This document shows positions 1 through 64,000 of a stretch of DNA of 64,000 nucleotides, one piece after another. Below the pieces are notes generated by a model. The model ran no database searches. It saw only the letters and a program-made list of their open reading frames with translations, and was not told where the DNA came from. The DNA is from Janibacter terrae NBRC 107853 (lineage in GTDB: Bacteria; Actinomycetota; Actinomycetes; Actinomycetales; Dermatophilaceae), in assembly GCF_001591405.1 (NCBI RefSeq), contig NZ_BCUV01000004.1, forward strand, positions 1 to 64,000, in the 5' to 3' direction. Numbering within the stretch: position 1 is the first letter of the stretch; the number at the start of each line of letters is the position of its first letter. The position numbers and the translations under genes are program-made.

Positions 1-645
1 ACCCTCGCGGCCTCCCTGCGCGCCGTCGTCGTGCTCTCGGCAGCGGCGGCTGCCGGGCTCGTCGCGGCCGCCGCACCGATCGGCCGGGTCTTCACCGCCA
101 TCGACCGGCGCGGCGAGGGCTCCCGGGCCCTGGCGGCCATGCCCGAGGCGCTCATCGCCATGGTGCCGGGACTCATCGCCTTCGCGCTGTGCGCCGTGGC
201 CCTGCGGGCGCTCTACGCGCGCGGCCGAGCCCTGCTCGCCGGGCTGACGATGGCCGGGGGCTGGCTCGTCGCGGCCGTCGTGCCGCTGCTCGTCCTCGGC
301 CCCCAGGACGGGGCCCGTCGCACCCTCGTGGTCCTCGGGCTCGCGTCCTCGCTCGGCATGGCGCTCGCGGGCCTGGGCCTGCTCCTGCGGGTGCGCCACG
401 ACTGGGGCGTCGAGGCCGTCGCCGGGCTGACGCGCGCCCTCGTCCTCGCCGGGCTCGCCCTCGGCGCGGGGCTGCTCGTCCACCTGCTCGGCCGGGACCA
501 CTGGCCCGAGCAGACCCCCTTCGTCGTCGTCGCCGGGGGCCTCGCCGCCGCCGCCGTCGCCGCGGGTGTGCTGCTCGTGGGGGCCGCACTCGACCCCGGC
601 CTGCGTGCCCGACTGCCCGGAGCACGGCGGACGAAGGGAGGATGA
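1..645 (+). CDS. murJ: Lipid II flippase MurJ, C-terminal part (start lies outside the window)
   Basis: The open frame is already running at base 1 and stops with TGA at 643-645, giving 214 visible residues. They form about six hydrophobic segments (near residues 8-28, 52-74, 82-100, 109-130, 148-168, 174-196) with short basic turns, ending in a short basic tail. This fits the last helices of MurJ/MviN, the inner-membrane flippase that exports lipid II for peptidoglycan synthesis. No catalytic motif is visible in this part, so the call leans on the helix pattern and on the neighbours: actinobacteria often carry steA, mctB and murJ just before a glycosyltransferase and pyrG. Another polytopic membrane protein cannot be excluded. 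Confidence 0.6.
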   Translation, partial: TLAASLRAVVVLSAAAAAGLVAAAAPIGRVFTAIDRRGEGSRALAAMPEALIAMVPGLIAFALCAVALRALYARGRALLAGLTMAGGWLVAAVVPLLVLGPQDGARRTLVVLGLASSLGMALAGLGLLLRVRHDWGVEAVAGLTRALVLAGLALGAGLLVHLLGRDHWPEQTPFVVVAGGLAAAAVAAGVLLVGAALDPGLRARLPGARRTKGG

Positions 646-649
646 GCCC

Positions 650-1687
650 ATGAGGATCCTGCTCTGCCTCGCGAGCGCCTCCGGAGGGATCGGGACGCAC
701 GTCGCCGACCTCGCCGCCGGGCTGCGCGCAGCCGACCACGACGTCGTCGTCGCCACCGAGCCGGGGACCCGCGAGCGGTTCGACCTGCCGGGGGAGGCGC
801 CCCTCACCCCACGCGCCGTGCGCGCCCTGGCCCGGGGGGCCGACGTCGTCCACGCCCACGGGTTCCGGGCGGGGCTGGTCGCCTCGGCCGCGGCGCGGGG
901 GACCCCCTTCGTCATCAGCCTGCACAACCCCGTCCGCGGCTCGGGGACCTCGCCGCGCCGGCTCGCGGGGGAGGCGGCCGCCCGGCTCGTCGTGCGGCGA
1001 GCCGACCTCGTCACCGGGGCGAGCAGCGACCTCGTCGCCGACGCGAGAGCGCTCGGCGCCCGGCGGGCGGAGCCGGCGGAGGTGCCCTCGCCACGGGTGC
1101 CCGGGCTGCTCGCCACCGACCGAGCCGCCTGGCGGGCCGCGCACCGTGACCTGCTCCTGGCGGGGCACGGGATGGCGGGGGAGACCCCCTTCGTCCTGAC
1201 GATCGCCCGGGTCGCCCCGCAGAAGGGCATCGACGTGCTGCGGACGGCGGCGGGGCTCGGAACCGGCACATGGGGGCTCGTCGGGCCCGGCCAGGAGGCA
1301 CTGACCGACCCGGGACCGGTGCGCCTGCTCGGCGCGGCCCGCGACGTCACGCCGTGGCTGCTGGCCGCCGACGTCCTCGTCGTGCCGAGCGAGTGGGAGG
1401 CCCGGGCCCTCGTCGTCCAGGAGGCCATGGCAGCCGGGACGCCCGTCGTGGCCCGCAGGGTCGGCGGCCTGCCGGACCTGCTCGACGGGGCCGGGCTGCT
1501 CGTCGAGGGCCCGCAGGACCAGGCCGCGGCGCCCATCGCGCGCGCCGTCGCCGCAGTCCTGGACCACCCGGAGCGCGCGGCGGCGGCCGCCGGACGCGCC
1601 CGCACGCGGGCCGCGACGTGGGACGGGCTCGAGGAGAGCGTGGCACGGTGGGTGGCCAGGTACCGAGCACTGCCCGATGTGACGTAG
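650..1687 (+). CDS. Family 4 glycosyltransferase (GT-B fold)
   Basis: Predicted cytosolic sugar-nucleotide-dependent glycosyltransferase of 345 residues. The N-terminal Rossmann half begins [18 protein letters not shown], with the glycine-rich acceptor loop typical of family 4. The C-terminal half has the donor-site region [20 protein letters not shown], where the two conserved glutamates of the E-x7-E motif contact the nucleotide sugar. The ATG at 650 is preceded by GGGAGG (636-641) at good spacing; a longer upstream extension is open but would overlap murJ. It sits 4 bases after murJ, so a cell-envelope role is likely, but acceptor and sugar cannot be read from sequence. Its TAG stop (1685-1687) forms the start of the next gene's -10 box. 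Confidence 0.8.
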
Positions 1688-1690
1688 ATT
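1685..1690 (+). promoter_or_regulatory. -10 box of a leaderless pyrG promoter
   Basis: TAGATT matches the actinobacterial TANNNT -10 element and lies 8 bases before GTG 1699, so transcription would begin at or next to the start codon. No ribosome site is seen upstream of the GTG, which supports leaderless translation. The TAG is also the stop codon of the preceding glycosyltransferase. No clear -35 box is visible. Confidence 0.55.
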
Positions 1691-1698
1691 GGAACCCC

Positions 1699-3422
<1,724 letters not shown>

Positions 3423-3423
<1 letters not shown>

Positions 3424-4058: not shown

Positions 4059-4103
4059 TCCGTCCGTGCGGGCCACGGGTTCGCCGAGCACCTCGCTCCT
4101 TCG

Positions 4104-4109
4104 TAGGAT
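4104..4109 (+). promoter_or_regulatory. Possible -10 box for aspS
   Basis: TAGGAT in the 105-base gap before aspS matches the TANNNT form seen repeatedly in this window. It lies about 55 bases before the ATG, so this would be a leadered transcript, unlike the N6-8 cases. No convincing -35 box is seen. Confidence 0.35.
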
Positions 4110-4163
4110 GAGCGGTGGCCGGGCGCCCGCCGGGCCGAGAACCACCCCTCGCGATAGGACGTC

Positions 4164-5969: not shown

Positions 5970-5972
5970 GCG

Positions 5973-6605: not shown

Positions 6606-6606
6606 G

Positions 6607-7077
6607 TCAGTCGCCGAGCAGCTCCACGAGCCGGTCGAGGAAGGCCGTCTGCGCGGCCACCACGAGCTCCCGGGCGCTGTCGAGGTCGTGCCACCCCGCG
6701 CGGTCGAGCTCGGGGAAGCTCTGCCGCCGGCCGGATCGCGGAGGCCACTCCATCTCGAACACGCCGCTCTCGACGAAGACGACGTCAGCTGCCGCGCCGA
6801 CCTCGATCGCCCACGCCGTGACCCGTTTGCCGCCGGACTGGCGGATCTCGCCGAGCGGCACACGGTCACCAGCCGGTGCCGGAGCCCCGGTCTCCTCCAG
6901 CCACTCGCGCTCGGCCGCGGCGAGCGGCTCCTCGTCCGGCCCGTGCTCGCCCTTGACGATCGTCCAGCCGCGCGGCCGCCTGGTCCACAGGGGGCCGCCC
7001 ATGTGCCCGAGGAAGACGTGCGCGCTCCCCCCTTCGCCCCGGACGAAGGGGAGCAGTCCCGCACTCGTGCGGGTCAC
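6607..7077 (-). CDS. NUDIX hydrolase (MutT-like)
   Basis: 156-residue single-domain NUDIX protein. The box is seen as VKGEHGPDEEPLAAAERE followed by WLEETG, with the metal-binding glutamates intact. The opening SAGLLPFVRGEGGSAHVFL and the segment HMGGPLWTRRPRGWTIVKGE resemble a small clade of nucleotide or dinucleotide hydrolases; the substrate cannot be told. It starts with GTG one base after the stop of the FUSC gene and is the last gene of a three-gene minus-strand unit. The gene before it and this gene share no functional logic that I can see. Confidence 0.82.
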   Translation of the reverse strand: MTRTSAGLLPFVRGEGGSAHVFLGHMGGPLWTRRPRGWTIVKGEHGPDEEPLAAAEREWLEETGAPAPAGDRVPLGEIRQSGGKRVTAWAIEVGAAADVVFVESGVFEMEWPPRSGRRQSFPELDRAGWHDLDSARELVVAAQTAFLDRLVELLGD

Positions 7078-7078
7078 C

Positions 7079-8788: not shown

Positions 8789-9522
8789 GCCAACCTCCCG
8801 CTGGTCCACTCCGCGTGCACCTCGTAGCCGAGCGAGAGATAGATCCGTCGTGCCCGGTCGTTGTGCGAGTACATCCCCAGCGTGCACCACCCGTGCTCGG
8901 CGACGGCGGCCCGGGTCAGCTCGGTCGTGACCGCCCGCGCGAGCCCACGGCCGCGGGCGGCGGGCACCGTCGTGATGCCGGCGAGCACCGGTGCGCCCGA
9001 GCGCTCGCGCTCGCAGCAGCCGACGGCGAGCAGGGCGCCGGCCGCGTCGCGGGCACCGAGCCAGCGCTGCCCCGCGCGGGCGAAGGGCTGCCCGTCGGTC
9101 CCCGGGTTGTGCATGTCGAGCAGGGCCTGGACCTCGTCGCGCTCCGACGGCCCCAGCTCGACGAGGCCCTCGACGGGCTCGGTGGCCGGCGCGGTCCGCG
9201 TGCTCATGAACTCCCAGCGGCCACCGACCGCCCCGAGCAGCCCGCCGAGGTCCTCCAGACCGCGGGGCAGGGTGACCGAGGTGGCTCCCTTCGCCCTCGC
9301 CCGGCTCACCCACGAGGCGAAGGGGGCGGACCCCACCAGCTCGCGCAGGGCCGCGTGGTCGCCCCGGAGCATGATCGCGACGCCGTGGGTGTGGGTCGGG
9401 CGGACGAAGGCGAGCGCCCACGCCGCCCCGGCGCGGATCGCGAGGGCGGGGACCTCGACGTCGGACGAGGCCTCGGCCCGCACGACCGGGTCGCCGCCGC
9501 TCCACTCCAGCAGGTGCGACAT
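8785..9522 (-). CDS. GNAT-family N-acetyltransferase
   Basis: 245-residue protein with a C-terminal GNAT fold (about residues 125-240). The acetyl-CoA binding segment reads [20 protein letters not shown] and is followed by [19 protein letters not shown], the standard motif A and B positions. The N-terminal 110 residues are less conserved and may be a degenerate second GNAT-like half. Acceptor is unknown. ATG 9522 was chosen; a GTG at 9540 would add six residues. It is first in the unit acetyltransferase, FUSC, NUDIX and is divergent from rarA, with about 36 bases between the two starts. Confidence 0.85.
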
Positions 9523-9551: not shown

Positions 9552-9558
9552 GCCACCT

Positions 9559-10974
<1,416 letters not shown>

Positions 10975-11074: not shown

Positions 11075-11151
11075 CGCGCCGGTCGCCCCCTTCGCTCCTG
11101 CCCGAGATCCTGCAGCACAGACCTGCACCACCAGATTGGACGCGAACACCC

Positions 11152-13825
<2,674 letters not shown>

Positions 13826-15495: not shown

Positions 15496-16313
15496 CGCTG
15501 CACGCGGGCGTCCTCGGCAGCCCGATCCGGCACTCGCTCTCGCCCACGCTCCACCGGGCGGGGTACGCGGCGGCCGGGTTGCCGGACTGGGAGTACACCG
15601 CCCACGAGGTCGACGAAGGGGGTCTCGCCCCCTTCGTCGCCGGTCTCGACGCCTCCTGGCGCGGCCTGAGCCTCACCATGCCGCTCAAGGTCGCGGCCTT
15701 CGACGTCGCCGACGAGGTGAGCGCGCTCGCCCGCGCGGCCGGCGCCATCAACACGCTCGTGCGCACGCAGGCGGGCTGGTCGGCGCACAACACCGACGTC
15801 CACGGGATTGTCGCGGCCCTCGCCGAGGCGGGTGCCGCGCACGTCTCCTCCGCGACGATCGTCGGGTCCGGGGCGACGGCCCGCTCGGCGCTGCTCGGGC
15901 TCGTCGGGCTCGGGGCGCGACGGGTCACCGTCGCTGCCCGGACCCCGTCCCGGGCCGAGGCCCTGCGGGACGTGTGCGACGTCGATCTGCAGGTCGTCCC
16001 GCTCCGGGAGTGGGCGACCACGGGTGACCGGGCCGTGGTCTCCACCCTCCCGGGGGGACCGGCCAACGCCGTCGCCGCCGGGCACACCCGCGGCGACCTC
16101 ACCGGGGTCACCCTCCTCGACGTCGTCTACGCCGACTGGCCGACCCCGCTGGCGCGGGCCGCCGCCGAGCACGGTGCGACGGTCGTCTCCGGGCTGGAGA
16201 TGCTCGTCCACCAGGCGGCGCGGCAGTTCGAGCTCTTCACCGGGGTCACGGCGCCCGTCGAGGCGATGCAGGCTGCCGGCCGGGAGGCACTCGGCCACAC
16301 CCCGGACGCCTGA
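15492..16313 (+). CDS. aroE: Shikimate dehydrogenase
   Basis: Reduces 3-dehydroshikimate to shikimate with NADPH. 273 residues. The substrate domain shows [14 protein letters not shown] and the catalytic Lys in LTMPLK, followed by GAINT and the Asp of NTDVHG. The nucleotide domain uses [10 protein letters not shown] instead of the usual GAGGAAR; this is typical of the short actinobacterial AroE group. GTG 15492 overlaps the mltG stop. It is first of four shikimate genes; the aroC gene that follows has its own promoter. No aroQ is present in this window. Confidence 0.93.
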
Positions 16314-16348: not shown

Positions 16349-17578
16349 ATGTTGCGTTGGTTGACCGCTGGTGAGTCGCACGGCCAGGCCCTCGTGGCGA
16401 CCCTCGAGGGGCTGCCCGCGGGCGTCGAGGTCACGACCTCGGACGTCGCCGGGGCCCTCGCCCGTCGCCGTCTCGGCTACGGCCGCGGGGCCCGCATGAA
16501 GTTCGAGCAGGACCAGGTGACCTTCCTCGGTGGTGTCCGCCACGGGAGGACCCTCGGCTCGCCGCTGGCCGTGATGATCGGCAACACCGAGTGGCCCAAG
16601 TGGGAGACGGTGATGAGCGCCGACCCCGTCGAGAGCGACGCGCTCGCCGCGGCCGACGACGTCAACGCGGAGAAGGAGATCGCCCGCAACCGGCCGCTCA
16701 CCCGCCCGCGTCCCGGCCACGCCGACCTCGTGGGCATGCAGAAGTACGGATTCGACGAGGCCCGCCCGGTCCTCGAGCGCGCCTCGGCCCGCGAGACCGC
16801 GGCCCGCGTGGCCCTCGGCGAGATCGCCGAGCGCTTCCTCGAGCAGGCCTACGGCATCCGCCTCGTCGCGCACACGGTCGCCATCGGTGAGGGCTCCGCC
16901 CCCGTGGACGGCCCGCTGCCGACCCCCGAGGACACCCCGGTCCTCGACGCCAACCCGGTCCGCGCGATGACCCGAGAGGGCACCGACGCCATGGTCGCCG
17001 AGATCGAGGCGGCCAAGAAGGACGGCGACACCCTCGGCGGCGTCGTCGAGGTCCTCGCCTACGACCTGCCCCCGGGCCTGGGCAGCCACGTCCACTGGGA
17101 CCGTCGCCTCGACGCGCGCCTCGCGGGCGCCCTCATGAGCATCCAGGCGATGAAGGGCGTCGAGGTCGGCGACGGCTTCACGACCGCCCGCCGTCGCGGC
17201 TCGGCCGCGCACGACGAGATGGAGCGTGACGCGGACGGCGTGATCCACCGCCGCACCGGCCGGGCCGGAGGGACCGAAGGGGGCATGAGCACCGGTGACG
17301 TGCTGCGCGTGCGCGCCGCGATGAAGCCCATCAGCACCGTCCCGCGCGCCCTCGAGACCGTCGACGTCGCCGGGACCGACCCGGCGACCGCCATCCACCA
17401 GCGCTCGGACGTGTGCGCCGTGCCCGCCGCCGGCGTCGTCGCCCAGGCGATGGTCGCCCTCGTGCTCGCCGAGGCCTGCGTCGAGAAGTTCGGCGGCGAC
17501 TCCGTCGCCGAGACCGCCCGCAACCACCGCGCCTACCTCGACGCGATCCCCGAGCTCATGCGGACGTGGGAGGCGTGA
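16349..17578 (+). CDS. aroC: Chorismate synthase
   Basis: Forms chorismate from EPSP with reduced FMN, the last step of the shikimate pathway. 409 residues. Family signatures are all present: [11 protein letters not shown] at the N terminus, [15 protein letters not shown], the RPRPGHADL stretch with the catalytic His, and [17 protein letters not shown] near the C terminus. The ATG is fixed by the conserved first residues [12 protein letters not shown]. The stop overlaps aroK (GTGA). Confidence 0.97.
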
Positions 17579-18090
17579 GCGGGGCCCCCTTCGTCGTCGT
17601 CATCGGCCCTCCCGGGGTCGGCAAGTCGACGGTCGCCCGCGAGCTCGCCGACCGCCTCGGCCGGTCCCTCGTCGACACCGACTCCCTCGTGGAGCAGCGC
17701 GAGGGACGCAGCATCTCCGACCTCTTCGTCATCGAGGGGGAGGAGTACTTCCGGGCCGCCGAGGAGCGCGCCGTGCTCGAGTCGCTCACCGATGAGGGCA
17801 TCGTCCTGGCGCTCGGTGGCGGGGCGCCGATGATCCCCGCGGTCACCGAGGCGCTGGCCGGGCACACGGTCCTCTTCCTCGACGTCGGCATCGCCGACGC
17901 GGCCAAGCGGATCGGCTTCGACACGAGCCGGCCGCTGCTGGCGGTCAACCCGCGGCAGAGCTGGATCCGGACGATGGAGGCGCGCCGCCCCACGTACGAG
18001 GCCCTCGCGACGCACCGCGTGGACACCGCGGGACGGCAGGTCGACGAGGTCGTGGCCGACGCCCTGCGTCTGCTGGAGGAGAGCGCGTGA
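17575..18090 (+). CDS. aroK: Shikimate kinase
   Basis: Phosphorylates shikimate with ATP. 171 residues. P-loop GPPGVGKST at residues 11-19, shikimate-binding Asp in [14 protein letters not shown] in the core, and SRPLL in the lid region. GTG 17575 overlaps the aroC stop; the pair GGGAGG just before is very close to the GTG, so translation probably depends on coupling. Followed by aroB with a GTGA overlap. Confidence 0.95.
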
Positions 18091-22364: not shown

Positions 22365-22409
22365 AGCCGTCGAGACCTGCGGGCGATGCCCCCTTCGCCC
22401 CCGCCGTCG

Positions 22410-30731: not shown

Positions 30732-30784
30732 GGTGGTTCCTCTCGATGGGTGGCCGGTCGGGCCGGTGGTACGAAGGGGGGAGG

Positions 30785-32515: not shown

Positions 32516-32598
32516 AACGCATGATGAGCCCCCTTCGCCCACGGGGTGGCGGTGCCGGGCGGACGTGGACGGATGTCGGGCGGTCCCGCCGCGGACGG

Positions 32599-36679: not shown

Positions 36680-39977
<3,298 letters not shown>

Positions 39978-44009: not shown

Positions 44010-44023
44010 GCGGACCCCCCTTC

Positions 44024-46625: not shown

Positions 46626-48617
46626 GTGCGCGTCGCCCAGGTCCTCGTCGACTCGGGGCTGGTCCATCTCGACCGGCCCTTCGAGTACCTCGTGCCCGAG
46701 GCCCTCGACGAGGCGGCGCAGCCCGGTGTCCGGGTCAAGGTGCGCTTCGCCGGGCGTGACCTGCCCGGCTACGTCCTCGAGCGGACCGAGGTCGCCGAGC
46801 ACACCGGTCGCCTCGCCGAGGTCCGCACCGTCGTCTCGCCGGAGCCGGTGCTGACCCCCGAGGTCCTCGAGCTCGCCCGACGCCTCTCCCGGCACCAGGC
46901 CGGCACGGTCATGGACGTCCTGCGCCTCGCGGTCCCGCCCCGGCACGCACGTGCGGAGAAGGCGTTGCCGCTCGACCCGCCCACCTGCGACCCGGCCACC
47001 GAGGCAGGGGAGGCGGGTCCCCCTTCGCCGGAGACGACGGCGGGGGTCCCGCAGGTCTGGGCGGGCTACCGGGCGGGGGCCGCGTGGTGGTCACGGGTCG
47101 CGGCGGGCGAGTCCCCTCGCGCCGCCTGGCTCGCCGCCCCCGGGCGGCCTGTGGATCAGGACTGGCCGCGGGCCCTCGCCGAGGCCGCCGGGGCCGCCCT
47201 CCGCTCCGGCCGGGGGAGCGTCGTCGTCGTGCCCGACCAGCGGGACGTCGCCCGCGTCGACGCGGCCCTGACCGAGGTGCTCGGGACGGGGCAGCACGTG
47301 CGCCTCACCGCCGGCCAGGGACCGCAGGCGCGCTACACCGCGTGGCTGAAGGTGCTGCGCGGTCACGTGCGCGTCGTCGTCGGCACCCGCGCCGCCGCCT
47401 ACGCGCCCGTGCGCGACCTCGGGCTCGTCGCCTGGTGGGACGACGGGGATGACCTGCACCTCGAGCCCCGCTCGCCCTACGCCCACGTCCGCGAGGTGCT
47501 CACCACGCGCGCCGACATCGAGGACGCCGCGCTCCTCGCCGGCGGGCTCGCCCTCTCGACCGACCTCGCCGCGCTCGTCGACGTCGGCCGGGTGCACCTC
47601 GTCGGCGGCATCACCTCCCGCCGCGAGGCCCCGCAGGTGCTCGTCGCCGGTGAGGGGACCGACGAGGAGCGGGACGGGCCGGGCGCCCGGGCGCACATCC
47701 CCTCGTCCGCGCACCGCGCCGCCTCCGCCGCCCTCGAGCACGGTCCCGTGCTGCTGCAGGTGCCGCGCCGCGGATACCTCCCCGCGATGTCCTGCGCGAG
47801 CTGCCGAGCGCCGGCGCGGTGCCCCGAGTGCCGAGGTCCGCTCGCGCTGCCCTCGCCCGACCGGTCGCCGGAGTGCGGGTGGTGCGGCAAGGTGCCCCGC
47901 GGCTTCGTCTGCCCGCACTGCGACGGCGACCGGCTGCGCGCCGGGATCATCGGCGCGCGACGGACCGCGGAGGAGATCGGGCGGTCCTTCCCGGGGACCC
48001 GCGTCATCACCTCCGGTGCAGGAGAGGTCCGCGAGGGCGTCGGCGCGGAGCCGACGATCGTGGTGGCCACCCCCGGTGCCGAGCCCGTGGCCGAAGGGGG
48101 GTACGCCGCCGTGCTCCTGCTCGACGCGTGGGCGAGCCTGGACCGGCCCGACCTGCGCGCGGGGGAGGAGGCGGTGCGGCGGTGGTTCGCCGCGGCGGGG
48201 CTGGCCCGCTCCTGGGCCGACGGCGGCACGGTGGTGCTCTGCGGTGCGCCGGGCCACGTGACGATCCCCCCGGTCGAGGCCCTCGTGCGGTGGGACCCGC
48301 AGTGGTTCGCGGCGCGCGAGCTGGCCGAGCGGGCCGAGCTGTCGCTGCCGCCGACGACGTGGACCGCCGAGGTGGTCACGGACCGCAAGCGCGTCGAACC
48401 GATCGAGCAGGCCGTGCGCGCCGCGGCGCCCGACGCCGCGGTGCTCGGGCCGCTGCCGGTACCCGGCGCGGACCAACGACGACGACTCGTCGTCACCGCC
48501 CCCTTCGCCGACGGGCCGCTCGTCGCCGCGGCGCTCAAGGACGTGCGCGCGGGGGAGAGCGCCCGCAAGGCGCCTGACCTGACCTCGGTCCGGGTGGGGC
48601 ATCTGAGCATCGGGTGA
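46626..48617 (+). CDS. priA: Primosomal protein N' without helicase motifs
   Basis: 663 residues. The N-terminal 3' DNA-binding domain starts VRVAQVLVDSGLVHLDRPFEY, and the zinc-binding region has four Cys pairs (CASCRAPARCPEC, then CGWC and CPHC). Where active PriA has a Walker A GSGKT and a DEAH box, this protein has RSGRGSVVVVPDQRD and WWDDGDD, so it should not hydrolyse ATP. This is known for actinobacterial PriA, which may act only as a loading platform. GTG 46626 is supported by the promoter spacing. Confidence 0.93.
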   Translation: MRVAQVLVDSGLVHLDRPFEYLVPEALDEAAQPGVRVKVRFAGRDLPGYVLERTEVAEHTGRLAEVRTVVSPEPVLTPEVLELARRLSRHQAGTVMDVLRLAVPPRHARAEKALPLDPPTCDPATEAGEAGPPSPETTAGVPQVWAGYRAGAAWWSRVAAGESPRAAWLAAPGRPVDQDWPRALAEAAGAALRSGRGSVVVVPDQRDVARVDAALTEVLGTGQHVRLTAGQGPQARYTAWLKVLRGHVRVVVGTRAAAYAPVRDLGLVAWWDDGDDLHLEPRSPYAHVREVLTTRADIEDAALLAGGLALSTDLAALVDVGRVHLVGGITSRREAPQVLVAGEGTDEERDGPGARAHIPSSAHRAASAALEHGPVLLQVPRRGYLPAMSCASCRAPARCPECRGPLALPSPDRSPECGWCGKVPRGFVCPHCDGDRLRAGIIGARRTAEEIGRSFPGTRVITSGAGEVREGVGAEPTIVVATPGAEPVAEGGYAAVLLLDAWASLDRPDLRAGEEAVRRWFAAAGLARSWADGGTVVLCGAPGHVTIPPVEALVRWDPQWFAARELAERAELSLPPTTWTAEVVTDRKRVEPIEQAVRAAAPDAAVLGPLPVPGADQRRRLVVTAPFADGPLVAAALKDVRAGESARKAPDLTSVRVGHLSIG

Positions 48618-49577: not shown

Positions 49578-51061
49578 GCCAGGACCGTCCGCACCACCGG
49601 GGGCCGCGGCAGAAGTCGCGCACCGCACCCTCCGCCCGGGCCCGTCGCGCCGACGTCCCCCGCTCGACCGCCCAGCAGGTGCTGCGTGCGGTCTCGCAGG
49701 ACGGCGCCTACGCCAACCTCGAGCTGCCCAGGGCCCTGCGCCGGGTGCGCCTGTCCGGACGGGACGCGGCCTTCGCCACCGAGCTGACGTACGGGACCCT
49801 GCGGATGCAGGGCCTCTACGACGCGGTCATCGCCGAGGCGTCCCAGCGTCCCGTGAGCAAGCTCGACGGCGGGGTGCTCGACGTGCTGCGCATGGGCGCC
49901 CACCAGGTCCTCGGCATGCGCGTGCCCGAGCACGCCGCCGCCGACCAGTCCGTCGCCCTCGCCCGCGCCGCGGCCGGTCAGGGTGCCGCGGGCCTCGTCA
50001 ACGCCGTCATGCGCCGCATCGGCGAGCGCAGCCGCGAGGAGTGGCTCGAGCTCGTCACGCCGACCGAGCCCGTCGCCGAACGGTTGGCCGTGTCGCAGTC
50101 GCACCCGGTCTGGGTCGTCAAGGCGCTGCGGCAGGCGCTCATCGGCCACGGCGCCGCGACGCCCGACGACGCGGACGCGGAGCTCGAGGAGCTCCTCGCC
50201 GCGCACAACGTGCCCGCCGACGTCTCCCTCGTCGCCCGTCCCGGCTTGGCCGACGTCGACGAGCTGCTCGCCGCCGGCGCGCAGCCCGGGCGGTGGTCCC
50301 CCTTCGCCGCCGAGCTCGAGAGCGGTGACCCCGGCGCGCTCGATGCCGTCCGCGAGGGCCGCGCCGCGGTCCAGGACGAAGGGAGCCAGCTGCTCGCCCT
50401 CGCGCTCGCCGCCGTGCCGGTCACCCCGCGCAGCGTCGGTGCACCCGAGCGGTGGCTCGACCTGTGCGCCGGGCCCGGTGGCAAGGCAGGCCTGCTCGCG
50501 GCGCTCGCGCTGCGGCAGGGGGCCGACCTCGTCGCCAACGAGGTGAGCGAGCACCGCACGGAGCTGGTCCGCCAGAGCCTGCGCCCCGCGCTGACCAAGG
50601 CCAGGGACCACGGTCGCGAGCTCGTCGTGCGCACCGGCGACGGCCGCGAGGTCGGCCGGGACGAGCCGGAGGTCTACGACCGGGTGCTCGTCGACGCCCC
50701 GTGCACGGGGCTGGGCGCCCTGCGCCGCCGGCCCGAGGCGCGCTGGCGCCGCCAGCCCACGGACCTCGCGGGACTGGGCCCGCTGCAGCGCGAGCTGCTC
50801 GCCGCCGGCATCGACGCGACGCGCCCCGGTGGCGTCATCGCCTATGCGACGTGCAGCCCGCACCTGTCCGAGACGACCTTCGTCGTGCGCGACGTGCTCA
50901 AGAAGCGTGACGACGTCGAGGTGCTCGACGCCCGGACCTTCCTCGCCGACGCGGCGACCGCCGAGCTGACCGGGCTCGGCGACGGGCCGCACGCCCAGCT
51001 GTGGCCCCACCTGCACGGCACGGACGGCATGTTCCTCGCACTCCTGCGCAAGAAGGGCTGA
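49574..51061 (+). CDS. rsmB: 16S rRNA m5C967 methyltransferase (RsmB/Sun family)
   Basis: 495 residues. A basic N-terminal tail leads to a NusB-like RNA-binding domain (about 30-165), then the SAM-dependent methyltransferase domain with [19 protein letters not shown], the catalytic Cys in [20 protein letters not shown], and the second Cys in [11 protein letters not shown]. Methylates a cytosine of 16S rRNA. ATG 49574 overlaps fmt. Confidence 0.95.
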
Positions 51062-51481: not shown

Positions 51482-52138
51482 GTGCAGATCTCTCCGAGCA
51501 TCCTGTCCGCCGACTTCGCCAACCTGCAGTCCGAGCTGCAGGCGATCGCCACCGCCGACTGGGCGCACGTCGACGTCATGGACGCCCACTTCGTGCCCAA
51601 CCTCACCCTCGGTCTGCCGATCGTCGAGTCGCTGCTGCGGGTGAGCCCGATTCCGATCGACTGCCACCTGATGATCGAGGACCCCGACCGGTGGGCGCCG
51701 CCGTACGCCGAGGCCGGGGCGCAGAGCGTCACCTTCCACATCGAGGCCGCCAAGGACCCGGTGACCCTCGCCCGCGGCATCCGCGCCCAGGGTGCGCGGG
51801 CGAGCATGGCGATCAAGCCGGGGACCCCCTTCGCCCCGTACGAGGAGCTGCTGCCCGAGCTCGACATGGTGCTCGTCATGACCGTGGAGCCGGGATTCGG
51901 CGGGCAGTCCTTCATGGCCGACCAGATGCCCAAGGTCGCGCAGGTCCGCGAGGCCGTGAAGCGCCACGGCGGTGACATCTGGGTCCAGGTCGACGGGGGA
52001 GTCTCGGCCAGGACCATCGAGCAGTGCGCCGAGGCGGGCGCCGACGTCTTCGTCGCCGGGTCCGCGGTCTACGGTGCCGAGTCGGCCGCCGCGGCCGTCG
52101 AGGAGCTGCGCGCGCTGGCGCAGGGGCACGCCCACTGA
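51482..52138 (+). CDS. rpe: Ribulose-phosphate 3-epimerase
   Basis: Interconverts ribulose 5-phosphate and xylulose 5-phosphate. 218 residues, TIM barrel. Signatures: [28 protein letters not shown] with metal His and Asp, [23 protein letters not shown] and [14 protein letters not shown] 51482 with an AGAGGA upstream. The product feeds ribulose 5-phosphate, a precursor of riboflavin, whose transporter lies next. Confidence 0.97.
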
Positions 52139-52231: not shown

Positions 52232-52276
52232 GCCCGAATTGCCGAGCGGGCCAACCCTTCGCACAATGTCCCTGCA

Positions 52277-52403: not shown

Positions 52404-52421
52404 CGCGGACAAGGACGACGC

Positions 52422-53420: not shown

Positions 53421-54260
53421 GTGCGCATCGCCGTGCCCAACAAGGGCTCCCTGTCCGAACCCGCCGTCGAGATGCTGCGCGAGTCCGGGTACCGGGTCCG
53501 CCGCGACAGCAAGGAGCTGATCGTCGCCGACGCCGACAACGACGTCGAGTTCTTCTACCTGCGTCCGCGTGACGTGGCCCTGTACGTCGGCAAGGGCCAG
53601 GTCGACGCGGGCATCACCGGCCGGGACCTGCTCCTGGACTCCGGCTCGGCCGCGACCGAGGTCATGGGCCTGGGCTTCGGCGGGTCGACCTTCCGCTTCG
53701 CCGGCCGGCCCGGTGAAGCGAGCAGCGCCGCCGACCTCGACGGTCGCCGGGTCGCGACCTCGTACGCCGGTCTCGTGCGCGACCACCTCGCGGCGAAGGG
53801 GGTCACCGCCGACGTCGTCCGCCTGGACGGCGCCGTGGAGACCGCCATCACCCTCGGCGTCGCCGACGCCATCGCCGACGTCGTCGAGACCGGGACCACC
53901 CTGCGCCAGCAGGGGCTGGAGGTCTTCGGCGAGCCCATCCTGCGCAGCGAGGCCGTGCTCATCCGCCGTGCCGACGCGAGCGAGGGAGGCATCGACGTGC
54001 TGCACCGGCGGCTCACCGGTGTCGTCACCGCCCGCGAGTACGTGCTGCTCGACTACGACTGCCCGGCCGAGCTCGTCGAGCAGGCCGTGCAGCTGACGCC
54101 CGGCCTCGAGTCGCCGACCGTGAGCACCCTGCACGACGAGCGCTGGTGCGCCGTGCGCTCGATGGTCCCGCGCGGCCGGACCAACCGGATCATGGACGAG
54201 CTGTACGACCTCGGTGCGCGCGCCATCCTCGTCACCGAGATCACGGCGTGCCGGCTGTGA
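53421..54260 (+). CDS. hisG: ATP phosphoribosyltransferase, long form
   Basis: First committed step of histidine synthesis. 279 residues, the long form with its own C-terminal ACT-like regulatory domain (about 205-279), so feedback inhibition by histidine is expected and no HisZ is needed. Start VRIAVPNKGSLSEPAVEML, the PRPP region VVETGTTLRQQGL and the end RTNRIMDELYDLGARAILV are diagnostic. GTG 53421 with GAGAGGA upstream. Confidence 0.96.
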   Translation: MRIAVPNKGSLSEPAVEMLRESGYRVRRDSKELIVADADNDVEFFYLRPRDVALYVGKGQVDAGITGRDLLLDSGSAATEVMGLGFGGSTFRFAGRPGEASSAADLDGRRVATSYAGLVRDHLAAKGVTADVVRLDGAVETAITLGVADAIADVVETGTTLRQQGLEVFGEPILRSEAVLIRRADASEGGIDVLHRRLTGVVTAREYVLLDYDCPAELVEQAVQLTPGLESPTVSTLHDERWCAVRSMVPRGRTNRIMDELYDLGARAILVTEITACRL

Positions 54261-56059: not shown

Positions 56060-56081
56060 GGCTCCCCCCTTCGCCCGCCCC

Positions 56082-56154: not shown

Positions 56155-56793
56155 TCAGATGCCGTAGGAGGCCGTGCGGACGGTCTCGACCGCCTCCGGC
56201 GGGCCGGTGAGCTCGACCTCGGCGACGCCCTTGCGGCCGAAGCCGAAGAGGATGATCTCGCCCGGACGCCCGTGGATCTCGACGACCGGGCCGTCGCCGG
56301 AGCCGATGCGGTCGCGGCGGCGGGCGGTGACGAGCTCGACGTCCACCCCCTTCGTCCGGCCGAAGAGCAGCCGACCCATGGTGGCGAGCCGGTCCCCGAG
56401 CGCCGAGACGAGCTCGGGCGAGAGGGTGCGGCGGGGGGCGCCGAGGCGGGCGCGCAGCAGGTCCTCGTGGTGGACGAACATCTCGACGAGGTTGACCTTC
56501 TCGTCCACCGCACCGACGCTCGTCGGGTGCCAGCGGGGCGGGCCGGACCGCAGGCGGGCGACGAGGTCCTCGAAGGAGTGGCGCTCGAGCAACCGGGCCA
56601 TGGCCTTCTCGGTGCGACCGGCGAGCGGCGCGGCGAGGATGCCGGCGGCCTGGTCGGGGCGGCCCTCGCGGACGACGAGGTGCGCGAGCAGCTCCGCGCT
56701 CGTCCAGTCGCCGCAGAGCGTCGGCGCGTCGGGGCCGAGGTCGAGGAGGGTGTCGCACAGTGCTTCGCGCTCGGCGCGGGCGTGGCGGGTCAT
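56155..56793 (-). CDS. TIGR03085-type protein (maleylpyruvate isomerase/DinB-like fold)
   Basis: 212 residues. The N-terminal helical bundle (about 1-125) reads RAEREALCDTLLDLGPDAPT then LCGDWTSAELLAHLVVREGR and holds the His in NLVEMFVHHEDLLRARLG, the metal-binding pattern of the mycothiol-dependent superfamily. The C-terminal part resembles a sterol-carrier-like beta domain. The family is actinobacterial and its function is unknown; a mycothiol-linked role is a guess. The ATG has GGAGG upstream. Confidence 0.8.
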   Translation of the reverse strand: MTRHARAEREALCDTLLDLGPDAPTLCGDWTSAELLAHLVVREGRPDQAAGILAAPLAGRTEKAMARLLERHSFEDLVARLRSGPPRWHPTSVGAVDEKVNLVEMFVHHEDLLRARLGAPRRTLSPELVSALGDRLATMGRLLFGRTKGVDVELVTARRRDRIGSGDGPVVEIHGRPGEIILFGFGRKGVAEVELTGPPEAVETVRTASYGI

Positions 56794-57284: not shown

Positions 57285-58852
57285 GCGCGCCGCGCACCCA
57301 GCTGCCCGCCCTCGACCACGGGCAGACCTGGCCGGACCTCGACACCTTCACCGACCTGGCCCGCGACCGGCGCGTCGTGCCCGTCGTCCGGCGGCTCGTC
57401 GCCGACGGCGAGACCCCGGTCGGGGTCTACCGCAAGCTCGCCGGGGACGCGCCCGGCACCTTCCTGCTCGAGTCCGCCGAGCACGGCGGGGTCTGGTCGC
57501 GCTGGTCGATGATCGGCGCGCAGAGCCGAGCCACCCTCACCGAGCGCGACGGCCAGGCGCACTGGATCGGTGAGCCGCCGGCCGGTGTGCCCACCGAGGG
57601 CGACCCGACCGTGGCCCTCCGGGCGACGCTCGAGGCGCTGCGGACCGACCCGATCGAGGGCCTGCCGCCGCTCACCGGTGGCATGGTCGGGGCGATCTCC
57701 TACGACGCCGTGCGCCGCTGGGAGCGCGTGCCGAGCGAGCTGCCGGACGTCCTCGGCGTCCCCGAGCTCGGCATGGTCCTCGCGACCGACGTCGCGGTGC
57801 TCGACCACAGCGACGGCTCGCTGCTGCTCGTCGCCAACGCGATCAACTACGACGACACCGACGAGCGCGTCGAGTGGGCCCACCAGGACGCGGTCGCGCG
57901 CCTCGACGCGATGACCGAGCGCCTCGCCGCGCCCGCCGCGTCGACCGTGGCCTCGGTCGACCCCGAGGTGGTGGAGAGCGCGCGGGCGGAGGTCGAGAGC
58001 GACATCAGCGTCGAGGGCTTCGAGGAGATCGTCGACCGCGCCAAGGAGGACATCCGCGACGGCGAGGTCTTCCAGGTCGTCCTGTCGCAGCGCTTCTCGA
58101 TGCCGTGCCCGGTCGACGCGCTCGAGGTCTACCGGGCCCTGCGACGCAGCAACCCGAGCCCGTACATGTACTTCGTGCGCCTGCCTCACCCCGACGGCTC
58201 GGTCTACGAGGTCGTCGGTTCCTCGCCCGAGGCCCTCGTCAAGGTCACCGGGCGCCGGGCGATCACCCACCCGATCGCGGGCACCCGCCCCCGCGGCACG
58301 TCCCCCGAGCAGGACCTCCAGCACGAGGAGGACCTCATCGGCGACCCCAAGGAGCGCGCCGAGCACCTCATGCTCGTCGACCTGGGGCGCAACGACCTGC
58401 AGCGCGTGTGCACGGCCGGCAGCGTCGACTGCGTCGAGTTCATGAACCTGCGTCGCTACAGCCACGTCATCCACCTGGAGTCGACCGTCGTCGGCGAGAT
58501 GGCGAAGGGGGTCGGGGCCTTCGACGTCCTCGTCTCCACCTTCCCCGCGGGGACGCTCTCGGGCGCTCCCAAACCCCGGGCCCTCGAGCTCATCGAGCGC
58601 TACGAGCGCAGCAGACGAGGGATCTACGGCGGGGTGGTCGGCTACCTCGACTTCCACGGGGACATGGACGTCGCCATCGCCATCCGGACCGCGCTCGTCA
58701 AGGACGGGGTCGCGCACGTGCAGGCGGGGGCGGGCATCGTCGCCGACTCGGTGCCGGGCCTCGAGCAGGAGGAGACGGTGCACAAGGCGGGTGCCGCGCT
58801 CGCGGCCGTCGCGGCGGCCCGGGCGACCCGCCCCATCGGCGGTGCCCGATGA
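57281..58852 (+). CDS. trpE: Anthranilate synthase component I
   Basis: 523 residues. Makes anthranilate from chorismate; ammonia comes from a TrpG subunit that is not in this window. The tryptophan feedback site is in the N-terminal part ([10 protein letters not shown]). The catalytic part has [33 protein letters not shown] and [18 protein letters not shown] 57281 overlaps the hisI stop. Confidence 0.97.
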
Positions 58853-59442: not shown

Positions 59443-59448
59443 GTGGCC

Positions 59449-61493: not shown

Positions 61494-62287
61494 GCGCGCT
61501 GAGCGAGGTCTTCGAGCGCTGCCGTGCCGAGGGCCGGGCCGCCCTCATCGGGTACCTGCCGGTCGGCTACCCCGACGTCGAGGGCTCGTTGGCCGCGATC
61601 ACCGTGCTCGCCGAGTCCGGCGCCGACATCATCGAGGTCGGCATGCCCTACAGCGACCCCGTCATGGACGGTCCGGTCATCCAGCGCGCGGCGACCGAGG
61701 CACTGGCGAAGGGGGTCCACGTCGACGACGTCTTCCGGGCGACGGCCGCCGCCCGCGCGGCGGGCGCCGTCCCGGTCGTCATGTCCTACTGGAACCTGGT
61801 GCTCCGTCGGGGCGTCGACCGCTACGCCGCGGACCTGGCCGCCTCGGGCGGAGCCGGCATGATCACGCCGGACCTCATCCCCGAGGAGGCGGGGGAGTGG
61901 CACGAGGCCAGCGAGCGGCACGGACTCGACCGCATCTTCCTCGTCGCCCCGAGCTCCACCCCCGAGCGGATCGCGACCGTCACCGCCGCGAGCAGCGGCT
62001 TCGTCTACACCGCGTCGACGATGGGTGTCACAGGCACCCGGGGCAGCGTCGGCAGCAGCGCGCCCGAGCTCGTCGCCCGGCTGCGCGGGGCGACCGACCT
62101 GCCGCTGTGCGTCGGGCTCGGCGTGAGCAACGGTGCGCAGGCGGCCGAGGTGGCCTCCTTCGCCGACGGCGTCATCGTCGGCTCCGCGCTCGTGGCCACC
62201 CTCATGGACCGCGGCCGCGACGAGGGGCTGGCCGCGCTCCGCGCGCTCACCACCGAGCTCGCCGAGGGCGTGCGGGGCCGGGTGTGA
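61490..62287 (+). CDS. trpA: Tryptophan synthase alpha chain
   Basis: 265-residue TIM barrel releasing indole. Catalytic Glu in [18 protein letters not shown] with the Asp nearby; later [18 protein letters not shown] and [13 protein letters not shown]. The GVPYSDP motif is GMPYSDP here. Coupled on both sides. Confidence 0.97.
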
Positions 62288-62763
62288 CCACCTGCTGGCG
62301 CGACCATGTCGGCCTCCTCGCCCGCGTGGCCCTGGGCGGTGTCCTCGTGTGGGCCGGTGCGCTCAAGCTCGGCAACCCGCTCGGCTCGGCCCGGGCGGTG
62401 CAGGCCTACGACGTCCTCCCCTTCGAGGTCGCGAAGTACCTCGGCTACGGCCTCCCGTGGCTCGAGGTCGCGGTCGGCGCGCTGCTCGTCATCGGCCTCC
62501 TCACCCGCGCCAACGCGCTCGTGGGAACCCTGCTCATGGCGGCGTTCGTCGTCGGCATCGCGCAGGCCTGGGCCCGCGGGCTGACCATCGACTGCGGCTG
62601 CTTCGGCGGCGGTGGCCAGGTGGCCGCCTCCGAGACCAGGTACGGCAGCGAGATCGCCCGGGACCTCGCGCTGGCCCTGTGCGGGCTGTGGCTCGTCGTC
62701 CGTCCGGCGTCGACGTGGAGTCTCGACCGGGTCCTCTTCGGGACCACGAAGGAGTTGCAGTGA
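62284..62763 (+). CDS. MauE/DoxX-like membrane protein
   Basis: 159 residues with four membrane helices (about 8-28, 45-68, 76-98, 118-138). The loop DCGCFGGGG between helices 3 and 4 carries the paired Cys typical of MauE, which supports disulfide formation in secreted proteins. It is followed by a DsbA-like protein, which fits that role. GTG 62284 overlaps the trpA stop. Confidence 0.85.
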   Translation: MTTCWRDHVGLLARVALGGVLVWAGALKLGNPLGSARAVQAYDVLPFEVAKYLGYGLPWLEVAVGALLVIGLLTRANALVGTLLMAAFVVGIAQAWARGLTIDCGCFGGGGQVAASETRYGSEIARDLALALCGLWLVVRPASTWSLDRVLFGTTKELQ

Positions 62764-63551
62764 GCACCACCGACCGCAAGGCCAAGGCGCAGGCCGCCGC
62801 CAGGGGAGCGAAGGGGGGCGCCAACGTCCTCGTCGTCGCCGGCGTGGTGGTCGTCCTCGTCATCGCACTCGTCGTCGGCGGGGCCATCTGGGCCTCGACG
62901 CGCGGCGGCGACACGGCGGCGAGCAAGCAGCCCGTCGGTGTCGAGCAGGGGCAGCCGATCGAGCCCTTCAAGGACGCGAAACCCGCGGCCGACGCGCCGG
63001 TCGTCGACGTCTACGAGGACTTCCGGTGCCCGATCTGCCAGGTCTTCGAGCAGGCGATGGGCGACACGATCAACGACCTGGCCAAGGACGGCAGGATCAG
63101 GCTGCGCGTGCACCTCAAGACCGTCATCGACACCAACACCGGCGGTGACTCCTCGGCCGTCGCCGGGTCGAGCGCCGTCTGCGCCGCCGACCAGGGCAGG
63201 TGGGAGGAGTACCACGAGGCGCTCTTCGCCCTGCAGCCCGCGACGGAGACGCAGCAGGGATTCCCCGAGGGCGACTACACCCGCGCGGCGAAGGAGGCCG
63301 GTCTCTCCGGCGACGCCCTCGACGCCTGGCAGGAGTGCACGGACGAGGGCACCTACGTCGACTACGTCAGGAGCGTCGACGACGCGACCGTCAAGGACGG
63401 CATCACCGGGACGCCGGTCATCGCGGTCGGCGGGACCCAGCTCAGCTGGGGGGCCCTGATGGACCAGCAGACGGGCCGGGCGGACACCACGCGCCTGACC
63501 GAGGTCCTCACGAGCGGCGAGGTGCCGCAGGACCTGGTGCAGCAGCGGTGA
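62760..63551 (+). CDS. Membrane-anchored DsbA-family thiol-disulfide oxidoreductase
   Basis: 263 residues: a basic N terminus, one membrane helix (about 23-45), then a thioredoxin-fold domain of the DsbA/Mtb DsbA-like type with the active site FRCPICQVF. Cis-Pro is in GTPVIAVGG. Additional Cys residues (VCAADQG, ECTDEG) may form a structural disulfide. Acts outside the membrane, probably reoxidised with help of the preceding MauE-like protein. GTG 62760 overlaps that gene. Confidence 0.9.
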   Translation: MSTTDRKAKAQAAARGAKGGANVLVVAGVVVVLVIALVVGGAIWASTRGGDTAASKQPVGVEQGQPIEPFKDAKPAADAPVVDVYEDFRCPICQVFEQAMGDTINDLAKDGRIRLRVHLKTVIDTNTGGDSSAVAGSSAVCAADQGRWEEYHEALFALQPATETQQGFPEGDYTRAAKEAGLSGDALDAWQECTDEGTYVDYVRSVDDATVKDGITGTPVIAVGGTQLSWGALMDQQTGRADTTRLTEVLTSGEVPQDLVQQR

Positions 63552-64000
63552 TCCCGGCCACGCTCCCTTCGCCCACCGTCGGGGTTCTCGCGCTCGGACC
63601 GCTGACGATCCACGCGTACGCGCTGTGCATCCTCGCCGGCATCGGCGTGGCCATCTGGATGGGCGACCGTCGCATGCGCGATCGCGGCGGCGAGGAGGGC
63701 CTCGTCCTCGACGTCGCGATGTGGGCAGTGCCCTTCGGCATCGTCGGTGGCCGGCTCTACCACGTCATCACCACCCCGCAGCCCTACTTCGGCGAGGGCG
63801 GGAGCCCCGTCGACGCGCTGAAGATCTGGCAGGGGGGCCTGGGCATCTGGGGCGCCGTCGCCCTCGGCGCCCTCGGGGCATGGATCGGCACCCGGCGGGA
63901 GGGGGTCTCCTTCCTCTCCTTCGCCGACGCCGTCGCACCCGGCGTGCTCGTCGCCCAGGCGATCGGGCGCTGGGGCAACTGGTTCAACAACGAGATCTAC
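63548..64000 (+). CDS. lgt: Prolipoprotein diacylglyceryl transferase, N-terminal part (runs off the window)
   Basis: 151 residues are visible with no stop. Lgt transfers diacylglycerol to the lipobox Cys of prelipoproteins such as MetQ. Seen: an N-terminal helix with LTIHAYALCILAGIGVAIW, the GIVGGRLYHVIT segment with conserved Arg, and QAIGRWGNWFNNEIY with the essential Gly/Asn region. GTG 63548 overlaps the DsbA-like stop. The trpA to lgt order is conserved in actinobacteria. Confidence 0.95.
   Translation, partial: MIPATLPSPTVGVLALGPLTIHAYALCILAGIGVAIWMGDRRMRDRGGEEGLVLDVAMWAVPFGIVGGRLYHVITTPQPYFGEGGSPVDALKIWQGGLGIWGAVALGALGAWIGTRREGVSFLSFADAVAPGVLVAQAIGRWGNWFNNEIY

What the first reader, a model, noticed from the sequence alone, without database searches (positions are those of the whole stretch)
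1..64000. Octamer CCCCTTCG/CGAAGGGG is strongly over-represented, on both strands
Scanning by eye I count about 45 copies in 64 kb (for example 516, 904, 1186, 7029, 11087, 17583, 22388, 40881, 48505, 56345 and, in the other direction, 9318, 13681, 18186, 28255, 34203, 58504, 62804), most extended to CCCCCTTCG(T/C)C. For a GC content near 72% chance would give roughly 5-6. The two orientations are about equal (near 25 and 21). It occurs in genes in more than one frame and in several gaps (11086, 22387, 32523, 44015, 56066). In genes, Ala-Lys-Gly is often written GCG AAG GGG in place of the commoner GCC AAG GGC, which suggests selection on DNA. Two sites are inverted pairs (7029-7051 and a 12-base perfect hairpin at 15611-15639). 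An unskewed, roughly one-per-1.4-kb word recalls DNA uptake sequences or a site for a chromosome-structuring protein.
Basis: partly seen in the sequence, partly recalled or inferred. Interest (0 to 1): 0.7.

Follow-up and report, generated by a model that had tools for sequence, protein, structure and literature searches.

The report
Genome-wide DNA word resembling uptake sequences
One small group of actinobacteria has filled its chromosomes with one to two thousand copies of a short DNA word that is distributed like the 'password' sequences some other bacteria use to recognise and take up DNA of their own kind, while close relatives carry a different word or none.

Summary
The window holds 46 CCCCTTCG/CGAAGGGG (25 and 21; order-3 Markov expectation 6.5). 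The genome holds 1797 CCCCCTTCG (892/905) against 22 for the reversed word. Consensus CCCCCTTCGYC, flanks random. The excess survives synonymous-codon shuffling; density is 2.3-4.7 times higher between genes; close pairs mostly form hairpins; no replication-strand skew was detected. All 16 genomes of the genus and both of a sister genus carry 797-1939 copies; the other 129 of 147 genomes searched have at most 80. Many other genera of the family, and a second family, over-use a different word, CGGCATMC, which this clade does not. That pattern matches DNA uptake sequence (DUS) dialects of Neisseriaceae. ComEA-ComEC and a Tad/Flp pilus are present, type IV PilM is not, but these genes are near-universal in the family and do not single out word-bearing genomes. 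In the window's own strain comEC is broken beside a prophage. Best reading: an uptake/self-recognition word for natural transformation (about 48%). Rivals: Chi for RecBCD (RecC in 17 of 18 word-bearing genomes) or a HIP1-like or DNA-protein site. Uptake itself is untested.

The parts
516..523 (+). word CCCCTTCG
904..911 (+). word CCCCTTCG
1186..1193 (+). word CCCCTTCG
7029..7036 (+). word, left member of inverted pair 7029-7051
7044..7051 (-). word, right member of inverted pair 7029-7051
9318..9325 (-). word CCCCTTCG
10275..10282 (+). word CCCCTTCG
11087..11094 (+). word, upstream of alaS (predicted start 11152)
11198..11205 (-). word, in alaS
13679..13686 (-). word, in alaS
15611..15639 (.). 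12-bp perfect hairpin made of two facing words, 5-nt loop, inside the aroE-type gene
15614..15621 (-). word, left arm of the hairpin
15629..15636 (+). word, right arm of the hairpin
17275..17282 (-). word, in the chorismate synthase gene
17586..17593 (+). word, just after the chorismate synthase gene
18175..18182 (-). word, in the 3-dehydroquinate synthase gene
21473..21480 (-). word CCCCTTCG
22390..22397 (+). word CCCCTTCG
23390..23397 (+). word CCCCTTCG
24672..24679 (+). word, in a glutamate-synthase-domain gene
25978..25985 (-). word, in a secretory-lipase-type gene
28253..28260 (-). word, in an AI-2E family transporter gene
28611..28618 (+). word, in an AI-2E family transporter gene
30772..30779 (-). 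word CCCCTTCG
32530..32537 (+). word, between predicted genes
33491..33498 (-). word CCCCTTCG
34203..34210 (-). word CCCCTTCG
35429..35436 (+). word, in an amidohydrolase gene
36045..36052 (-). word CCCCTTCG
36466..36473 (+). word CCCCTTCG
39228..39235 (+). word, in carB; same place in 3 of 16 other word-bearing genomes' carB
39720..39727 (-). word, in carB; same place in 2 of 16 other word-bearing genomes' carB
40881..40888 (+). word CCCCTTCG
42116..42123 (-). word CCCCTTCG
44017..44024 (+). word, ending at the predicted start (44024) of a flavoprotein/DFP gene
47020..47027 (+). word CCCCTTCG
48092..48099 (-). word CCCCTTCG
48500..48507 (+). word CCCCTTCG
50299..50306 (+). word CCCCTTCG
51826..51833 (+). 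word CCCCTTCG
53794..53801 (-). word CCCCTTCG
56066..56073 (+). word, between predicted genes
56347..56354 (+). word CCCCTTCG
58503..58510 (-). word, in an anthranilate-synthase-I-type gene
61707..61714 (-). word, in the tryptophan synthase alpha gene
62418..62425 (+). word CCCCTTCG
62809..62816 (-). word CCCCTTCG

Best explanation
CCCCCTTCGYC is a genome-wide self-recognition word of the DNA uptake sequence kind. Cells of this clade would bind it on free DNA, probably through a Tad/Flp pilus and a ComEA-ComEC route, take up DNA carrying it preferentially and recombine it in, so that copies accumulate wherever coding allows (synonymous positions, gaps, hairpins). Other genera of the family would use a different word (CGGCATMC) or none, which would limit exchange between genera. 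Shown: the word, its excess, no detected strand skew, gap enrichment, hairpin pairs, clade limit, the second word, presence of the machinery genes. Inferred: binding, preferential uptake, accumulation by uptake bias, the receptor.
For: 1797 copies against 22 for the reversed word, 892/905 by strand. All 16 genus genomes 797-1860, both g38 genomes 1317 and 1939; the other 129 of 147 genomes at most 80; of 394 genomes drawn across the class only G000 and G052 reach such numbers (next 231 copies in 9.2 Mb, reversed word 139). Synonymous shuffle: 195 vs 60.5+/-7.0 and 177 vs 21.8+/-4.6 (G000), 114 vs 34.5 and 119 vs 13.1 (G008); negative control G063 6 vs 5.2. Gaps 1.33 vs 0.58/kb in genes (G000), 3.05 vs 0.65 (G008). 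Pairs within 40 bp: CGAAGGGG..CCCCTTCG 24, opposite 5, direct 0 (G000); 24, 5, 2 (G008). Leading:lagging 192:167, p 0.21. A second word in other genera of the family, bimodal: 37 of 63 family genomes at 390 or more per Mb, 26 at 245 or fewer, word-A clade 142-189, also above the codon null (38 vs 8.3; 82 vs 18.2). ComEC 43/43, TadE 39/39, Flp pilin 76/80 genomes. Mobile-looking stretches are word-poor: prophage 12 per 44.5 kb, C7:390-440k 8 per 50 kb, genome sample 506 per 744 kb. DUS dialects, and inverted DUS pairs linked to terminators, are reported for Neisseriaceae (PMC3630211, passages).
Against: No uptake data. ComEC, TadE and Flp are near-universal in the family and do not separate word-bearing from word-free genomes: with words called by density, Flp is in 53 of 54 genomes with either word and 23 of 26 with neither, p 0.098; an earlier ratio cut gave p 0.011 only because it called G087 word-free. 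PilM is absent from all 18 word-bearing genomes, so the known DUS receptor system (ComP on a type IV pilus) is unlikely to apply. In the window's own strain comEC is broken. One-mismatch forms are not in excess for the 9-mer (Rep -0.01, 0.10) and moderately for the 11-mer (1.9, 2.8), below the published value of about 10 for an A. pleuropneumoniae uptake word. Bias to gene ends is slight. The two words of the family share no obvious core.
Confidence: 0.48

Rival explanations
1. The word is the Chi site of this clade's RecBCD enzyme: it stops degradation of the cell's own broken DNA and starts recombination.
For: RecC is found in 17 of 18 word-bearing genomes (the miss, G015, is 79% complete) and in 13 of 37 others; the sister G063 lacks RecC. 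One strand of the word is G-rich (CGAAGGGGG), as known Chi sites are (recalled).
Against: No orientation bias to replication detected (192:167), while Chi in E. coli is biased (recalled). Hairpin pairs and gap enrichment are not expected of Chi. Word-bearing genomes form one clade, so the RecC link may be one event. RecC+ G024, G025 and G055 show no strong word, and the family's other word goes with absence of RecC (4 RecC+, 18 RecC- of 22).
Confidence: 0.18
2. The word is a binding or modification site of a clade-specific DNA protein (nucleoid-associated protein, methylase, HIP1-like process), unrelated to uptake.
For: HIP1 in cyanobacteria is of similar or greater magnitude (Rep 1129 for the 10-mer) and its role is unsettled (recalled). 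Nothing here shows the word in use.
Against: The word is not a palindrome, unlike HIP1. Two unrelated words in one family would need two such proteins. No candidate gene was searched for, so absence of one is not evidence.
Confidence: 0.23
3. Oriented chromosome-structuring or segregation signal (KOPS/AIMS for FtsK).
For: Abundance throughout the chromosome.
Against: No strand skew; no rise towards the terminus (Spearman with distance from the origin -0.42, p 0.07; near-origin half 172, near-terminus half 187 copies).
Confidence: 0.04
4. Chance, codon usage, or a mobile repeat.
For: Part of the count in genes is expected from codon usage: 7.8 of 39 in the window.
Against: Synonymous shuffle exceeded, larger excess between genes, flanks near background beyond 11 bp, no excess in the GC-matched sister G063.
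Confidence: 0.02

Closest known systems
DNA uptake sequences (DUS) of Neisseriaceae
   Same: A 9-11-base non-palindromic word, here about one CCCCCTTCG per 2 kb, on both strands, inverted pairs able to form hairpins, enriched in gaps, different words in related genera (dialects; PMC3630211, passages)
   Different: Actinobacteria; no PilM, a Tad/Flp pilus instead; the family's two words share no obvious core, whereas the eight Neisseriaceae dialects share three bases; uptake untested
Uptake signal sequences (USS) of Pasteurellaceae
   Same: Abundant non-palindromic word with two types in one family (Apl type mentioned; the other recalled)
   Different: Lineage, sequence; bias to gene ends reported there (PMC2346458, abstract) is only slight here
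Chi sites for RecBCD/AddAB
   Same: Short, clade-specific, over-represented; RecC present in 17 of 18
   Different: No strand bias detected; larger excess over base composition (Rep 15-21 for this 9-mer; 5.7 for the E. coli Chi 8-mer; lengths differ)
HIP1 of cyanobacteria
   Same: Very abundant short word limited to a lineage
   Different: HIP1 is a palindrome; this is not

Membership tests
DNA uptake sequence | Strong genome-wide over-representation not explained by codons or base composition | tested here: met
DNA uptake sequence | Both strands, no replication skew | tested here: met
   892/905; 192:167, CI 0.48-0.59 (one genome, 359 sites)
DNA uptake sequence | Enriched between genes; inverted pairs forming hairpins | tested here: met
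   whether the pairs terminate transcription was not tested
DNA uptake sequence | Clade-specific variants (dialects) | tested here: met
   the second word is unrelated in sequence, so a looser kind of dialect
DNA uptake sequence | Graded excess of one-mismatch forms | tested here: inconclusive
   11-mer Rep 1.9-2.8, 9-mer about 0; in excess mainly T (and A) at position 1, T at position 2, C at position 9
DNA uptake sequence | Bias towards gene ends (reported for Pasteurellaceae) | tested here: inconclusive
   outer four deciles 236 vs 207 expected; whole shape p 0.15
DNA uptake sequence | Uptake channel and pilus genes present | tested here: met
   ComEC 43/43, TadE 39/39, Flp 76/80; loci; not discriminating
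DNA uptake sequence | Known receptor system: minor pilin ComP on a type IV pilus | tested here: not met
   PilM in 0 of 18 word-bearing genomes, 2 of 55 in all; ComP itself was not searched for
DNA uptake sequence | Preferential uptake of DNA with the word | not testable with these tools
   needs an experiment
Chi site | Cognate RecBCD present | tested here: met
   RecC in 17 of 18
Chi site | Orientation bias to replication (as in E. coli, recalled) | tested here: not met
   192:167; a bias below about 59% is not excluded
Chi site | Attenuates the nuclease and stimulates recombination | not testable with these tools
   needs an experiment
KOPS/AIMS | Strand skew and increase towards the terminus | tested here: not met
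HIP1 | Palindromic word | tested here: not met
   sequence itself
HIP1 | Associated DNA methylase | not tested
   no search made

The most novel reading that the evidence does not exclude
Actinobacteria of two families keep a DUS-like system of unrelated genome-wide words (CCCCCTTCGYC in one clade, CGGCATMC in many other genera), read by a Tad/Flp-pilus uptake route with an unknown sequence-specific receptor: uptake words that arose independently of the Neisseria and Haemophilus ones, with word replacement between genera.
Probability: 0.4. Interest if true: 0.87.

Novelty: new variant of a known kind. Interest (0 to 1): 0.74.

Why it matters
In the abstracts and passages seen here, uptake words are described for Neisseriaceae and Pasteurellaceae. 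Searches of the held open-access library for such words in Actinobacteria or Micrococcales, and for these words by their letters, listed nothing that describes them; one search listed 15 of 33 papers and one search listed 8 of 28, most subscription journals are not held, and the listed papers were not all opened. An actinobacterial word system would be an independent origin, would mark which genera are or recently were transformable, would point to a sequence-specific receptor outside the type IV pilus, and would make the origin and replacement of such words testable within one family. If it is Chi instead, it would be a conspicuous Chi candidate for an actinobacterial RecBCD.

Tried and rejected
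Chance, codon usage, mobile repeat: rejected. KOPS/AIMS: rejected on skew and gradient. Type IV pilus: PilM absent. Presence/absence of uptake genes: ComEC and TadE in every genome searched, no power. In that test 9 of 89 family genomes were left out to meet the limit of 80 handles: G015 and eight word-A-free ones, of which six have 444 to 1244 CGGCATMC per Mb and two 215 and 232; their Flp status was not examined. RecC link: confounded by one clade. Naming the organism: the named-genome scan returned no close relative, a plasmid search gave no genus, nor did a phage search with one prophage protein; only the family is bracketed by Terrabacter and Nostocoides. The gene caller failed on the lower-GC genomes G026 and G018, so gap enrichment of the second word rests on G041 alone. 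Repeats in G030 and G039 look like arrays and were not counted as words. Even spacing: var/mean 0.72-0.86, partly caused by merging sites within 60 bp and after leaving out two word-poor stretches (L090, L099). A paper with the letters CCCCTTCG (PMC4287430) turned out to list a transposon end (passage).
Full report
THE OBSERVATION. The window (64,000 bases, 73.2% GC) contains 25 CCCCTTCG and 21 CGAAGGGG; Markov models of orders 1 to 4 expect 3.1 to 7.8; orders 5 and 6, trained on the word itself, 24.6 and 37.9. Thirty-eight of 46 extend to CCCCCTTCG, and C or T then C usually follow. In the larger sample the consensus is CCCCCTTCGYC with flanks near background (505 sites of G000, 359 of G008). 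In the pooled stretches of G000 and G008 (1.14 Mb) 644 CCCCCTTCG are seen against 14.2 expected from a word-masked order-4 model; the CTTC at positions 5 to 8 is rigid, T at positions 1 and 2 is also in excess (138 against 12.5, 178 against 15.2).

GENOME-WIDE. The window lies in G000 (3,576,202 bases, 11 contigs), which holds 892 + 905 CCCCCTTCG; the word read backwards occurs 22 times.

NOT CODON USAGE. Shuffling synonymous codons within each predicted gene (100 times) gives, for G000, CCCCTTCG 60.5 +/- 7.0 (195 seen) and CGAAGGGG 21.8 +/- 4.6 (177 seen); for G008 34.5 (114) and 13.1 (119). Both orientations together: window 7.8 (39 seen), G052 8.3 (43), G001 7.1 (33); the nearest word-free relative sampled, G063, 5.2 (6). 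Ala-Lys-Gly is GCG AAG GGG in 57 of 102 cases. The gene finder was home-made and no codon-pair null was run.

WHERE THE COPIES ARE. Density is higher between predicted genes: 1.33 against 0.58 per kb in G000, 3.05 against 0.65 in G008; the two orientations on genes are about equal (195:177, 114:119). Per base it is highest in convergent gaps (3.18 and 3.98 per kb, against 1.66-1.78 and 3.18-3.56 in the others). Pairs within 40 bases are mostly inverted with the words as the outer stem of a hairpin: 24 of 29 in G000, 24 of 31 in G008, often with further complementary bases inside. They resemble intrinsic terminators, but this was not tested, and the window's own hairpin lies inside an aroE-type gene. 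Neisseria DUS show such inverted pairs (PMC3630211, passages). Inside genes the bias to the ends is slight (outer four deciles 236 against 207; whole shape p 0.15).

NO REPLICATION SIGNAL. In G008 CGAAGGGG lies 192 times on the leading and 167 on the lagging strand (53.5%, CI 48-59%, p 0.21), taking the origin at base 1 and the terminus opposite. There is no rise towards the terminus (Spearman with distance from the origin -0.42, p 0.07).

WHO HAS IT. Of 147 genomes (own and 146 relatives), 18 carry 797 to 1939 copies: all 16 of the genus (G015, 79% complete, 870) and both of genus g38; the other 129 have at most 80. In 394 genomes drawn evenly across the class, only G000 and G052 reach such numbers; the next is 231 in a 9.2-Mb genome (reversed word 139), and G457 has 203 against 73. 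In a carB tree the 17 word-bearing rows (all but G015) form one clade (82/92, drawn open) with word-free G063 as sister (100/98); G001, placed in the genus, groups with G052 there. The organism could not be named; Terrabacter and Nostocoides fall among its family in the tree.

A SECOND WORD. A k-mer survey of 60 to 100 kb each of eight RecC+ and five RecC- word-A-free relatives found another over-used word: CGGCATAC in G026 (71 against 5.7) and G018 (44/4.5), weakly G040 (10/0.9); the variants CCGCATAC in G035 (22/1.7) and CGGCATCC in G041 (62/6.1) and, weaker, G016 (37/8.9); no strong word in G024, G025, G055, G063. Counting CGGCATMC in the 147 genomes, the word-A clade has 398 to 597 copies, 142 to 189 per Mb; of 63 other family genomes 37 have 390 to 1304 per Mb and 26 have 128 to 245, with nothing between. 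Of the eight family genomes left out of that list, six are high and two low. Among 296 class genomes high counts are confined to f1 and f19 (for example G124 4563, G305 4927); a 60-kb survey of G124 gives CGGCATCC 105/14.1. Congeners can differ: G276 587 against 2370 to 4927 in six others of g79; G016 1365 vs G067 632; G040 1949 vs G083 600. In G041 the second word is also denser between genes (4.0 against 0.70 per kb) and above the synonymous null (38 vs 8.3; G124 82 vs 18.2). One family thus holds genera with word A, with word B and with neither, the pattern of DUS dialects, though the two words share no obvious core.

MACHINERY. ComEC is in 43 of 43 genomes searched, whatever their word. 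In 12 loci read, the gene caller found comEC in 10 and comEA in 9, side by side (domains of the G008 pair). PilM is in 2 of 55 genomes and in none of the 18. TadE is in 39 of 39. In G000 a tadZ-tadA-tadB-tadC-flp-tadE-like locus lies at C2:11.1-14.8 kb (tadZ by position only, tadB match below cut-off). Its Flp pilin (DUF4244) is in 76 of 80 genomes; with words called by density, 53 of 54 genomes with either word have it and 23 of 26 with neither, p 0.098, so it does not discriminate. Micrococcus luteus, an actinobacterium with ComEA and ComEC, needs Flp pili for transformation (PMC6370729, passages).

CHI. RecC is in 17 of 18 word-bearing genomes and in 13 of 37 others. This keeps Chi alive for word A, but word B goes with absence of RecC (4 RecC+, 18 RecC- of 22; 9 and 6 of 15 with neither), and the missing skew and the hairpins speak against Chi. 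In Bakkali's tables (PMC1939737, passages) the excess over base composition is 145 for an A. pleuropneumoniae uptake word, 5.7 for Chi, 1129 for HIP1; here it is 15 to 21 for the 9-mer and 60 to 76 for the 11-mer. One-mismatch excess there is 10, 1.5 and 10; here about 0 for the 9-mer and 1.9 to 2.8 for the 11-mer.

MOBILE DNA. In the window's strain only the part of comEC from about codon 270 of the G008 protein was found; next to it stands a serine-recombinase gene followed by phage-type genes (one with PhageMin_Tail), and the same gene order starts again 44.5 kb further on, so two tandem prophage copies or an assembly effect. The 5' part of comEC and comEA were not found in the 80 kb read, so the far junction was not seen. 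Elements inserted in competence genes are known (PMC4774983, passages). The prophage unit has 12 of the 8-mer in 44.5 kb and C7:390-440k has 8 in 50 kb, against 506 in 744 kb of the sample.

SITE TURNOVER. In 17 carB genes of word-bearing genomes only four carry the word at all, at four positions; one is shared by G000, G004, G012 and G052, one by the first three, while nearer relatives lack both: patchy gain and loss, compatible with exchange, not proof.

VERDICT. The uptake-sequence reading explains most features, but nothing here shows uptake, machinery genes do not discriminate, and the receptor is unknown. I put it at 0.48, Chi at 0.18, another DNA-protein or HIP1-like role at 0.23. Searches for the words by their letters found no paper that describes them; searches for uptake sequences in Actinobacteria or Micrococcales gave one paper (not opened), none, and no title to that effect among 15 listed of 33.

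Noticed in passing
G000 C6:460.9-532 kb (L173, L228, L229, L230): comEC is broken beside a serine-integrase prophage of about 44.5 kb that appears twice in tandem; competence is probably off in this strain.
   Followed up: partly
L116:9734, L117:17288, L122:3146 and others in G008: Palindrome ACCCTAGGGT within a longer imperfect palindrome: 17 copies in 400 kb of G008 (16 outside predicted genes), some in pairs 42 bases apart; none in the G000 sample. Perhaps a regulator box.
   Followed up: partly
families f1 and f19, e.g. G022, G041, G124: Second genome-wide word CGGCATMC, up to 5476 copies (G022), with low counts in some congeners.
   Followed up: partly
G039 and G030 stretches (L177, L185, L197-L199; L178, L224, L225): Highly repeated longer words (around AGCGGGGATGAGCC and AGCGGCATACGG) that look like repeat arrays, perhaps CRISPR.
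   Followed up: no
G000 C7:390-440 kb (L231, L099, L232): Lower-GC stretch nearly free of the word (8 in 50 kb), a likely island; gene content not examined.
   Followed up: partly
window 19355-20392: IS481-type transposase gene.
   Followed up: no
window 52275-52405: FMN riboswitch (Rfam RF00050).
   Followed up: no
family f1: RecC is patchy: 30 of 55 family genomes; of 14 control genomes only E. coli has it.
   Followed up: partly
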